Origin: Tilletia caries
Taxonomy: Eukaryota; Basidiomycota; Exobasidiomycetes; Tilletiales; Tilletiaceae
Assembly (NCBI GenBank): GCA_032718865.1
Contig: JALUTQ010000026.1
Coordinates: 806,001-870,000 of the forward strand
Length of the DNA stretch: 64,000 nt
Reading direction: 5' to 3'
The notes below the pieces were generated by a model. It did no database searches. It was not told where the DNA came from and worked only from the letters and a program-made list of their open reading frames with translations. Position 1 is the first letter of the stretch; the number at the start of each line of letters is the position of its first letter. Both the position numbers and the translations under genes were made by a program. Shown here piece by piece: positions 57,013-62,717 of the stretch.

Positions 57013-57372
57013 TCAAGGATGAAGCGTGTGCCGATCAGATGGTACCGTAGCTTCCGGATGGCCTTGTATACTCCGCACAGCTCGAGTTTTGGTTGGCTGT
57101 ATCGTGCCTCGGTCGGTCATGGCGATGGAGTCGTACAGTACCACTACTCGTCCTCGAGGAGCGGGGTGTTCTTGAAGCAACGTGTACCCTACTGCGATCT
57201 GGGAGGAGTCCACGGAGACAACGATGGACGAGGTCGACTCGTAATCGATCACTCCTAGATAATGGTGCGCCGCGGCCGCCGTTTTGACGTTTTCTACCGC
57301 TGCCGTTGCTTCCGGGTTCCATTTGAACGTTCGTCCTACGAGCTTTCGCAGAGGCTCGTCAATGATGGCCAT
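57013..57372 (-). pseudogene. gypsy-2 Pol: start of RNase H, out of frame with both neighbours
   Basis: This frame reads the RT-RNase H junction MAIIDEPLRKLVGRTFKWNPEA and SSIVVSVDSSQIAVGYTLLQE with the first RNase H Asp. It is separated from the RT frame by a one-base shift near 57,500 and from the next frame by an apparent 4-bp tandem duplication (ACCGACCG, about 57,115). These are disabling changes unless they are sequencing errors. Confidence 0.75.
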
Positions 57373-60300: not shown

Positions 60301-62717
60301 GTTGTTCCTTGCTGAGATAAGTTTAAGGCCGGCCCGTGTGTTGGAGCTCGGTGATCGATCTGAGCTCGTTCTCGTTGCATCTCGAGCGTCGCCTTCTTGA
60401 AGAACGTCTCGGGTTGGAAGCAGCGTTGAACCTCTTCTAGGACGTGTTGGAAAGTTGCGTCCTCGTCCCTCAGAGATGAGTTCTGGAGCGTGCTAAGCAG
60501 CTCAATCGGCAGTCCTCGGACAAAGTATTGCAGCAGCTGCTTCGCCCCGATTTGTCCTCGTTGGACGAGCTTGTCTCCGATGTCCTTGAAGGCCAAGCTG
60601 TAGTGGTTGAGTTCTGTGAGCGTTCCAATGGTTCGATTTCGGAGGACGAAGGCGCTGAGAACGTGCTCAGTGTATTTGTCCATCTCGGGCCCTTCGAACC
60701 CTGTCATTATGAAGTGCCGTACTGCCGTCCAGTTCCCCGCTATGTACGAGGAGTGAGCCTCGATGAGGCTGAAGATGTCGGGATCCTTATCCTCGACGTA
60801 GAAGGACAAGTATTTCAGACGTTCTTCGTCCGAGATGTCCAGAGCCTCGAACTTGCGCAGAAAGGCTTTTGCGTTTCGTCCCTCGAACTTTCCGACTGCG
60901 TCGATCGTTCCTTTCGTTGAAACCATTCCGTACCTTCGCCCTGCTGGCTGGGGCGACGTTTCTTGGAGGCTTGCACTCATGGGTGGTCGTGATAGGCTGG
61001 AAAGGATGGTTGGGCTCGTGGCTTGCTGGTTGACCGGGGCTTGGTCATGCTCTCCTCGGGTCTCGCTATAGCGGTCGAATTCATTGTCGTCCACCGACGG
61101 CCCTCCTCCGGTTTGTTCGGACAGAACGTCAATCTCGTCCATGTTGTCAAGATCGTTCTGATAGACCGTCATTCGTTCCAGGATTCTTTGTCCATCGATG
61201 GCAAACCGGAAGGTTTCTCCATACGCCTGATTCAGGTGGTTGGCGATGAGAGAGAAGGAGGCCGTGGTTTTGATGGTTGCGGTCCAGGTTCCGATCTTTT
61301 CACCCTCCAGCCTCAACTTGACGTACCCTGGCGGAGGTGGCGGAAGGGTAGTAAGGGCTCCCTTCTGGATAAGCCTCAGTGCATTGGGGTCCAAGCTCGT
61401 TCGCTCAGGGGTGTCTTCCTCGAGGTAGTGTTGATAGGAGACAGCGTCAAGTGTGTCTCCATCTCGAAGGTGTGGACTGGGGTAGTTCGGGTTGATTTCC
61501 TTTTCGTTTTTCAGATACCGGAACGTTCGACCATAGGTGTACTCCAGATAGTTTGTTACCGTAGACAGAGGGCTTCTTGGGGACAAGATGAGCGTCCAAA
61601 ATCCGGTCACCGGTCCTCGCAGTTGTAGCCGAACTGAGTTGCTTTGGGCAGGGACTTGCCCAATGTTTCCTCGAACGATTCCGTGCCCAGTGCCGATGTA
61701 AACGTCCCCGAAGATGCAACGTTGGTTCCCGCTGTCAAGAGAGATGCTCCGATGGGCCGGGGGAACTGGTTTGTTGGTCTGGTTGGGTTGTATCGTTCTC
61801 GTGCTGGGCTGGATGATCCAGGACGGTTCGATGCCCATTGCAACCGAGATTTCGTACGTCTGCCCTCTTCGAAGGCGGTGTCCGCTCAAGGGAACGTTCC
61901 TGAGTAGCCGTAGCCCATGGTATGCGTACAAGGGCATTCCTGCTTGGTCGAGGTGAAGCCGGAGCCAAGTGAGCAAGTCATCTCCGTTGACTTCCGATCC
62001 TACGCACATGGAGAACGTTCGCCGTTCCCATTCGACGTCGACTTGCAGGTATATCGGTTCGCGGTCCCCATCAACTCCTGGGCCCAGGAAGAGTTCGTGG
62101 GTAGTTAATCGCGCATCAGGTCGTTCGTTCAGCTGGCTTCGGCGGAAATGGAGCAGAATCGTTCCGGTATTGAAGGTCGAGAGTAGAAGATCGTCATTTG
62201 GTTCGTCTTCGTAATGTTGAAGGTAGGTTCCTTCGAGAGCGAGTTCGAAGGCTCGTTTGACGTTGCCGAGGGTCAGCTGGCTTCGGGATCGTAGATGTAC
62301 GGCAGTGGTTGGAATCCCGGGCCAGAGGTCGGTCAGCAAGACTTGTAGGCGTACTTCGTCGTTTCTTGTGACTGGTCCATCGTAGTGAGGATAAATTTCT
62401 CCTTCCAGTCCGATAGGGCTGAGCTGGAGTAGGAGGCGAATCCACTCGGGTTTCTGGAAAGGGATTACTCGGGCTGGGTTCATGACTACGGTCAAAACGT
62501 CCCCGTTCATCAGAGGTAGTTGTCGGATTTGTTCGTAGGTGCTGACGGGGACTGTTCGTATCGTGAGAAAGAAGTCAGCTTCGTTGGTTCGGGTAGCCTT
62601 GGCGTAACTTGCGGCCATCGAGCCCAAGGTTTCGTCTTCGGTTTTGATCCAACTTCGTTCGTATCCCAAGTCATCTTTCAAGGAGAGGTGGATGCTATCG
62701 TTTCTCATGGTCATCAT
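57336..62717 (-). pseudogene. gypsy-2 polyprotein: ubiquitin/SUMO-like segments, Gag, zinc knuckle, protease, RT
   Basis: A 1,793-codon frame. Residues 1-540 hold up to four beta-grasp-like segments: about 6-80 (ends GDVLTVVMNP), 219-293 (ends GQTYEISVAMG), 359-430 (YGRTFRYLKNEKEI.. DGDTLDAVSYQ) and 464-537 (LRLEGEKIG.. ETFRFAIDGQRI..EIDVLSEQTGG). The last matches SUMO in its FxFxxDGxRI core and in the EQTGG end. Capsid-like Gag follows at about 612-780 (FEGRNAKAFLRKFEAL), zinc knuckle CVYCNDPQHARDRCP near 916, protease LLDSGSQIN near 1246, and RT with FVKKKNGDLRMIIDMR and FIDD near 1674. A one-base shift near 57,500 ends homology; the last 55 residues are out of frame. I infer that SUMO-protease cleavage after GG could release Gag. 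Confidence 0.85.

What the first reader, a model, noticed from the sequence alone, without database searches (positions are those of the whole stretch)
57336..62717. A gypsy retrotransposon polyprotein with tandem ubiquitin/SUMO-like segments and a diglycine end before Gag
Seen: residues 1-540 repeat a beta-grasp-like pattern up to four times, the last reading FRFAIDGQRI and ending EIDVLSEQTGG directly before Gag. Known: SUMO ends in QTGG or a close variant after an acidic strand and is cut after GG by Ulp/SENP proteases. Inference: the host SUMO protease may cut after GG to free Gag, or the segments may recruit SUMO-pathway proteins at integration sites. Ubiquitin-like cleavage modules are known in some viral polyproteins; I cannot say whether this retroelement family has been described.
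Basis: partly seen in the sequence, partly recalled or inferred. Interest (0 to 1): 0.86.

Follow-up and report, generated by a model that had tools for sequence, protein, structure and literature searches.

The report
Retrotransposon carrying a SUMO-like array
A family of jumping genes in smut fungi begins its protein with a row of SUMO-like domains and keeps a Gly-Gly at the end of the last one, which suggests that the host's SUMO-cutting enzyme is borrowed to trim the protein.

Summary
ORF 57336-62717(-) is the Ubl-Gag-protease-RT part of a Ty3/gypsy element with 1.4 kb LTRs in a smut fungus (a near-identical partial protein is labelled Tilletia controversa). Residues 1-540 are predicted to form five beta-grasp-like units, not four. 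The last is SUMO-like by sequence, even with its tail removed, and resembles the host's own SUMO (15 of 35 C-terminal residues). Three Tilletia indica polyproteins and a distant second element in this genome carry similar arrays. In all five element types the last unit before Gag ends GGG-P; 4 of 4 copies of the window's family here keep the GG. dN/dS (window versus C6 copy) is 0.07 in the array, 0.17 in Gag. R64 and R71 of Smt3, which contact Ulp1, are kept in 5 of 5 last units; the SIM groove is mostly lost. Best reading: the host SUMO protease cuts after GG and frees Gag with Gly-Pro at its start. Cleavage is not shown, and the last unit folded alone gave a poor model. Nine searches of open-licence papers found no earlier description. 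A new variant of a known kind.

The parts
52918..54342 (-). 3' LTR of the element (left in window)
   Evidence: 1425-column match to the other LTR, 4 mismatches and one gap opening of 45 columns
63803..64000 (-). 5' LTR, runs on past the window to about 65182 (L009 1803-3182)
63787..63799 (-). candidate primer binding site TGGTGGAGACTGC, 3 nt inside the 5' LTR
   Evidence: complementary to a tRNA 3' end ...CCA by reading, tRNA not identified
63040..63720 (-). upstream 226-aa ORF of unknown function, conserved in the other copies
57336..62717 (-). Ubl array-Gag-protease-RT open frame, 1793 aa (P0001)
62478..62699 (-). Ubl unit 1 (residues 7-80)
62133..62363 (-). Ubl-like unit 2 (residues 119-195)
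   Evidence: AF2 strand-strand-helix-strand only, lower confidence
61830..62060 (-). Ubl-like unit 3 (residues 220-296)
   Evidence: AF2; weak profile match to redesigned ubiquitin E 0.022
61428..61640 (-). Ubl-like unit 4 (residues 360-430), no GG
   Evidence: AF2; 28% identical to unit 5
61104..61328 (-). Ubl unit 5 (residues 464-538), SUMO-like, ends EQTGG
   Evidence: isolated model poor
61098..61109 (-). GGGP (residues 537-540), proposed cut after 538
   Evidence: invariant in 5 of 5 aligned element types; GGG codons in 4 of 4 copies, Pro changed to Thr in the C1 copy
59913..60914 (-). Gag core to zinc-knuckle-like CVYCNDPQHARDRC (about residues 602-935)
   Evidence: motif position; zinc knuckle by reading only, no Pfam match in this ORF
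58749..59009 (-). aspartic protease (residues 1237-1323)
   Evidence: Pfam Asp_protease_2 4.1e-6
57615..58034 (-). reverse transcriptase (residues 1562-1701)
   Evidence: Pfam RVT_1 8.5e-12
57013..57372 (-). RNase H piece in another ORF
   Evidence: Pfam RT_RNaseH_2 5.2e-7
55083..57002 (-). integrase piece (H2C2 and rve) in another ORF
   Evidence: Pfam Integrase_H2C2 4.3e-14; rve 5.5e-7, 30.2 bits, below its 32.6 cut-off

Best explanation
This is a Ty3/gypsy retrotransposon of smut fungi whose polyprotein starts with an array of SUMO-like and ubiquitin-fold units. The last unit before Gag mimics the host SUMO precursor: SUMO-type sequence, several of the same Ulp1-facing residues, and a C-terminal GG followed by Gly-Pro. 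The host SUMO protease (Ulp1, peptidase C48) recognises that unit as it would pro-SUMO and cuts after GG. This removes the array and leaves Gag with a defined Gly-Pro N-terminus, separately from the element's own aspartic protease. Shown by sequence: the array, the conserved GG, purifying selection, the resemblance to host SUMO, and a host C48 family. Inferred: the cut, the enzyme, and what is gained, for example a Gag release that waits until the polyprotein meets Ulp1 (recalled to sit at nuclear pores).
For: GGGP is invariant in an alignment of the window ORF with four other element types that are 22-45% identical to it, and there are further GG ends inside the arrays. All 10 GG-bearing units that I cut out align to SUMO without a gap between the last strand and GG. 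The last unit matches SUMO by profile: E 9.3e-26 with the tail (12 units), 1e-13 without it (5 last units). It aligns to host SUMO at z 13.2, 0 of 1000 shuffles, and not to host ubiquitin, z -0.9. R64 and R71 are the only invariant columns in the 5 tail-less last units. Both are listed as Ulp1 contacts, and R64E, D68R, R71A and G97A yeast mutants accumulate unprocessed Smt3 (PMC5319795, passages). Window unit: 9 of 18 Ulp1 positions but 2 of 11 SIM positions identical to Smt3 (host SUMO: 8 of 18 and 8 of 11). The 2 aligned units without GG also lack R71 and G69. dN and dS, window versus C6: array 0.027 and 0.356, last unit 0.026 and 0.646, Gag 0.038 and 0.223. Host genome: 13 peptidase C48 matches, counted exon by exon, and a SUMO gene ending EQVGG. 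The residue after GG is Gly in all 10 GG-ended units; that Ulp1 tolerates any P1' but proline is recalled.
Confidence: 0.6

Rival explanations
1. The array is a targeting or scaffolding module. It stays on Gag and binds SUMO-pathway proteins (Ubc9, SIM proteins, STUbLs), bringing particles or the integration complex to SUMO-rich chromatin; GG is only a flexible end.
For: Five units of which only one ends in GG in this copy; purifying selection over the whole array; E2-contact positions of the last unit are partly kept (4 identical, 8 similar of 15).
Against: SIM-groove positions are mostly lost (2 of 11; of the basic residues K38, K40, R47, R55 only K40 is kept in the window unit). A linker does not need GGGP at a fixed SUMO spacing in 5 of 5 element types.
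Confidence: 0.2
2. After cleavage the freed array, with its exposed GG, is itself conjugated by the host E1/E2 and works as a transposon-encoded SUMO.
For: E1-contact positions of the last unit: 5 of 9 identical in the window (as many as host SUMO), 6 of 9 in P0004; GG-ended internal units in P0002, P0004, P0005 and P0006.
Against: No conjugation evidence; the size of the array; the last units of P0005, P0006 and P0002 keep only 3 of 9 E1 positions.
Confidence: 0.1
3. The array is a structural N-terminal part of Gag, cut (if at all) by the element's aspartic protease; GGGP is a conserved turn.
For: The element encodes a protease; the single-domain model is poor.
Against: Joint conservation of GG with R64 and R71, and absence of R71 and G69 in the two aligned units without GG.
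Confidence: 0.1

Closest known systems
Ty3/gypsy LTR retrotransposons (Metaviridae)
   Same: LTRs, candidate PBS, Gag with a zinc-knuckle-like motif (by eye), aspartic protease, RT, RNase H, integrase in that order
   Different: an N-terminal array of about five beta-grasp-like units with GG; another gypsy family read in this genome (three copies, L046, L047, L049) starts with Gag and no array
SUMO / Smt3 precursor
   Same: SUMO-type sequence, RFxxDGxRI segment, last strand and GG spacing, residues after GG
   Different: fused behind other units to a retrotransposon polyprotein; SIM groove mostly lost; conjugation unknown
Polyubiquitin
   Same: head-to-tail beta-grasp units (top Foldseek match is linear tetra-ubiquitin)
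   Different: divergent units (4 and 5 are 28% identical), no similarity to host ubiquitin, only one unit with GG in the window copy
RENi family, Rad60-Esc2-NIP45 (PMC549199, search listing only)
   Same: more than one SUMO-like domain in one chain; Pfam Rad60-SLD is the matching model
   Different: those are cellular chromatin proteins without a processed GG (recalled); here GG is conserved
Ulp1- or OTU-carrying transposons such as Ginger1 and Mutator elements (PMC2836005, passages)
   Same: mobile elements tied to the SUMO/ubiquitin pathway
   Different: they carry the protease; this one carries the substrate-like SUMO domains
African swine fever virus polyproteins cut at Gly-Gly-X by a cysteine protease (PMC4584293, passages)
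   Same: GG-X cleavage of a polyprotein, as in the proposed logic
   Different: a viral enzyme there, and no SUMO fold mentioned in the passages; here a host enzyme and a SUMO-like unit are proposed

Membership tests
Ty3/gypsy retrotransposon | two near-identical LTRs | tested here: met
Ty3/gypsy retrotransposon | protease-RT-RNase H-integrase order | tested here: met
   over three ORFs; protease, RT, RNase H and integrase Pfam domains are listed in one protein for P0004 and P0005, while none for protease is listed for P0006
Ty3/gypsy retrotransposon | flanking target-site duplication | tested here: inconclusive
   no clear duplication seen by eye at the borders
SUMO (last unit) | SUMO-type sequence, nearer to SUMO than to ubiquitin | tested here: met
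SUMO (last unit) | beta-grasp fold | tested here: inconclusive
   strand/helix order and pLDDT 75-85 for residues 461-530 in the long model, but a poor isolated model without a SUMO match
SUMO (last unit) | C-terminal GG at SUMO spacing followed by a tail | tested here: met
SUMO (last unit) | SIM-binding groove residues | tested here: not met
   2 of 11 identical to Smt3, host SUMO 8 of 11; alignment of the N-terminal half is uncertain
SUMO (last unit) | cut by Ulp/SENP and conjugated to lysines | not testable with these tools
   needs bench or proteome data
Ubl unit 1 | ubiquitin/SUMO fold | tested here: met
Polyubiquitin | near-identical ubiquitin repeats | tested here: not met
   units 4 and 5 are 28% identical (units 1-3 not compared pairwise); none of five units resembles host ubiquitin significantly

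The most novel reading that the evidence does not exclude
A retrotransposon lineage has taken up SUMO, multiplied it into an array, and uses it twice: the host SUMO protease frees Gag at a defined point, and the released array with exposed GG acts as a transposon-encoded SUMO that modifies or decoys host SUMO-pathway proteins during integration or silencing.
Probability: 0.1. Interest if true: 0.92.

Novelty: new variant of a known kind. Interest (0 to 1): 0.77.

Why it matters
Retroelements are thought to process Gag with their own protease (recalled). A SUMO precursor mimic placed before Gag would hand one cut to a host enzyme and tie particle assembly to the host SUMO machinery. It is also the reverse of the known case in which transposons carry SUMO proteases. 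The conserved GG makes the idea directly testable, and the arrays suggest that a host modifier can be captured and multiplied by a mobile element.

Tried and rejected
Host SUMO amplification: the equal-scoring Rad60-SLD matches looked like many host SUMO genes; those whose reading frames were visible in the (cut) output are ubiquitin or polyubiquitin, and two weaker ones are degenerate ubiquitin pieces. Rejected.

Homologue search with residues 1-560 alone: none at E <= 1e-3 among 7991 scored candidates. The RT-region search (7 proteins at E <= 1e-10 among 3260 candidates) and the profile search (16 at E <= 1e-5 among 7990 scored) found the relatives. Of these 23 proteins, 3 (P0004, P0005, P0006) show the array with GG and P0010 is a partial near-copy of the window. 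P0003, P0007, P0008 and P0009 are partial or begin after the array's place. P0011-P0025 showed no GG-ended array by eye in the stretches printed (330 residues each for P0012-P0025, 1700 for P0011).

Viral contigs: alignment A3 gave no usable pattern; P0004 gave 9 pattern matches and no relative.

Unit 2 was not searched against PDB by profile; units 1 and 3 gave no significant match. The C23 protein alone gave no significant PDB match to SUMO (E 0.059).

Literature: ten searches in open-licence PMC papers, nine for earlier descriptions and one for the Ulp1 interface. Searches returned no papers. No title or abstract start listed by the others describes ubiquitin-like domains in an LTR-retrotransposon polyprotein; two searches listed 20 of 21 and 15 of 30. 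Most listed papers were not opened. Passages only were read in PMC1949818, PMC2836005, PMC13317346, PMC5741268, PMC5319795, PMC8912903 and PMC4584293.

Caution: the rows of A3 (12) and A7 (5) were cut out by eye because they looked like Ubl units, so their E-values lean towards the reading, without the tail, is the cleaner one. The GGG chance product assumes independence, which does not hold.

Full report
What is there. The window lies on contig C21 of a 38.1 Mb genome in 40 contigs. The ORF 57336-62717(-) encodes 1793 aa with aspartic protease and RT. RNase H and integrase follow in other ORFs. LTRs lie at 52918-54342 and 63803-65182, with 4 mismatches and one gap of 45 columns in 1425, which suggests a fairly young insertion. 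The best database relative is a partial protein labelled Tilletia controversa, 916 aa, 100% identical after rounding over 51% of the ORF, standing for 46 member sequences; at least one residue differs. The host is therefore probably T. controversa or a close relative; the genome itself is unnamed. Tilletia is in the Ustilaginomycotina, Basidiomycota.

SUMO by sequence. Unit 5 matches Pfam Rad60-SLD (E 7.3e-4, below cut-off; 24.9 bits, above cut-off, in the own-genome scan) and SUMO-2 in PDB (E 7.2e-5). Profiles of such units match SUMO at 9.3e-26 (12 rows) and at 1e-13 with the GG tail cut off (5 rows). The top chain is a double SUMO-2; the best single SUMO chains are at 2.2e-12 and 3.8e-7 respectively. 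The C23 protein alone is weaker: Rad60-SLD 19.5 bits, below cut-off, Smt3 fusion chain E 0.059. Against the host's own SUMO, found at C4:1683k, unit 5 scores z 13.2 with 0 of 1000 shuffles reaching it, and z -0.9 against host ubiquitin. Units 1-4 of the window show no significant match to either; the best is unit 4 versus SUMO, reached by 54 of 1000 shuffles. The last 35 residues of unit 5 align to host SUMO without gaps, 15 of 35 identical, reached by 0 of 100000 shuffles.

Relatives. The same genome holds three more copies of this family, on C6, C1 and C7. All three have Q-T-G-G-G codons at that place; the printed C6 and C1 frames read EQTGGG. In C1 the Pro after GGG is Thr. A distant element on C23 (27% identical over residues 377-941) has two units ending EEQHGGG and GMHGGGP, the latter before Gag; no second copy of it was listed. 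Three T. indica polyproteins, 54-61% identical over the RT query region, carry arrays ending QVGGGP, LIGGGP and LIGGGP before Gag, and further internal GG ends. In a MAFFT alignment of these five types, G537, G538, G539 and P540 are invariant. Another gypsy family in this genome, seen as three similar copies (L046, L047, L049), starts with Gag and no array. In the 23 database proteins found, no array was seen outside Tilletia, as far as they were printed.

Selection. Between the window and C6, dN and dS are 0.027 and 0.356 for residues 1-540 (ratio 0.07), 0.026 and 0.646 for unit 5 (0.04), 0.038 and 0.223 for Gag (0.17), 0.009 and 0.031 for protease-RT (0.29). C1 and C7 agree for array and Gag; for protease-RT the values are 0.023 and 0.248 in C1 (0.09) and 0.004 and 0.031 in C7 (0.14). 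The other copies resemble one another in array and Gag, so this is close to one comparison there. The array is kept at least as strictly as Gag.

Which SUMO function is kept? PMC5319795 lists Smt3 residues contacting Ulp1, SIMs, E2 and E1 (passages). On a MAFFT alignment whose N-terminal half is uncertain, the window's unit 5 is identical to Smt3 at 9 of 18 Ulp1, 2 of 11 SIM, 4 of 15 E2 and 5 of 9 E1 positions; host SUMO at 8, 8, 7 and 5. Ulp1 counts for the last units of P0004, P0005, P0006 and P0002 are 10, 6, 6 and 7 of 18; SIM counts 1, 1, 0 and 2 of 11. Two of the Ulp1 positions are GG itself, by which the rows were chosen; without them the counts are 7 (window), 8, 4, 4 and 5 of 16, and 6 for host SUMO. 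R64 and R71 are the only invariant columns in the 5 tail-less last units. Of 10 GG-bearing units R71 is kept in 8 and G69 in 9; of the 2 aligned units without GG, neither keeps R71 or G69. The E-Q before GG is kept in the window unit, in two units of P0004 and in one (not the last) of P0002, and in none of the other six.

Mechanism. The host has the enzymes: 13 peptidase C48 matches, counted exon by exon, so the number of genes may be smaller and some may belong to mobile elements, and a SUMO precursor ending EQVGG-ARTSRTA. The simplest account is that the last unit is a SUMO-precursor mimic cut after GG, leaving Gag with Gly-Pro at its start. The residue after the cut is Gly in all 10 units, compatible with Ulp1 (recalled rule: not Pro). 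What the element gains is inferred: a cut independent of its own protease, or a release tied to where Ulp1 sits. Recruitment through SIM binding is less favoured because the groove is mostly lost.

Novelty. No earlier description was found in nine searches of open-licence PMC papers; subscription papers are not covered. Transposons that carry SUMO or ubiquitin proteases are known (PMC2836005, passages); here an element carries the modifier-like substrate. It is a gypsy element with a new accessory array, so a new variant of a known kind.

Noticed in passing
63040-63720 (-): A separate 226-aa ORF between the 5' LTR and the array ORF is 97% identical without gaps in C6 (21 of 681 nt and 8 aa differ; dN 0.016, dS 0.083) while the spacer next to it has gaps. 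Its function is unknown; its weak Pfam matches, below cut-off, are leucine-zipper and coat-like models.
   Followed up: partly
57336-62717 versus L050 (C6) and L052 (C7): Synonymous divergence is 0.65 in unit 5 but 0.03 in protease-RT between the window and the C6 and C7 copies, which suggests mosaic elements with a different Ubl-Gag part.
   Followed up: partly
L045 2507-2509: In the C23 element a single in-frame stop separates the Ubl-Gag-protease frame from the RT frame; decay or readthrough cannot be told apart.
   Followed up: no
52913-52917 and 65183-65187: No clear target-site duplication flanks the LTRs by eye.
   Followed up: no
53737-53916: The LTR holds a 45-nt tandem repeat, and the two LTRs differ by one gap of 45 columns; whether the gap lies in the repeat was not checked.
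   Followed up: no
L010 (C7:524000-533999): Two polyubiquitin frames with three units each lie in opposite orientation about 3.4 kb apart; other ubiquitin copies were matched on C4, C32 and C21.
   Followed up: no
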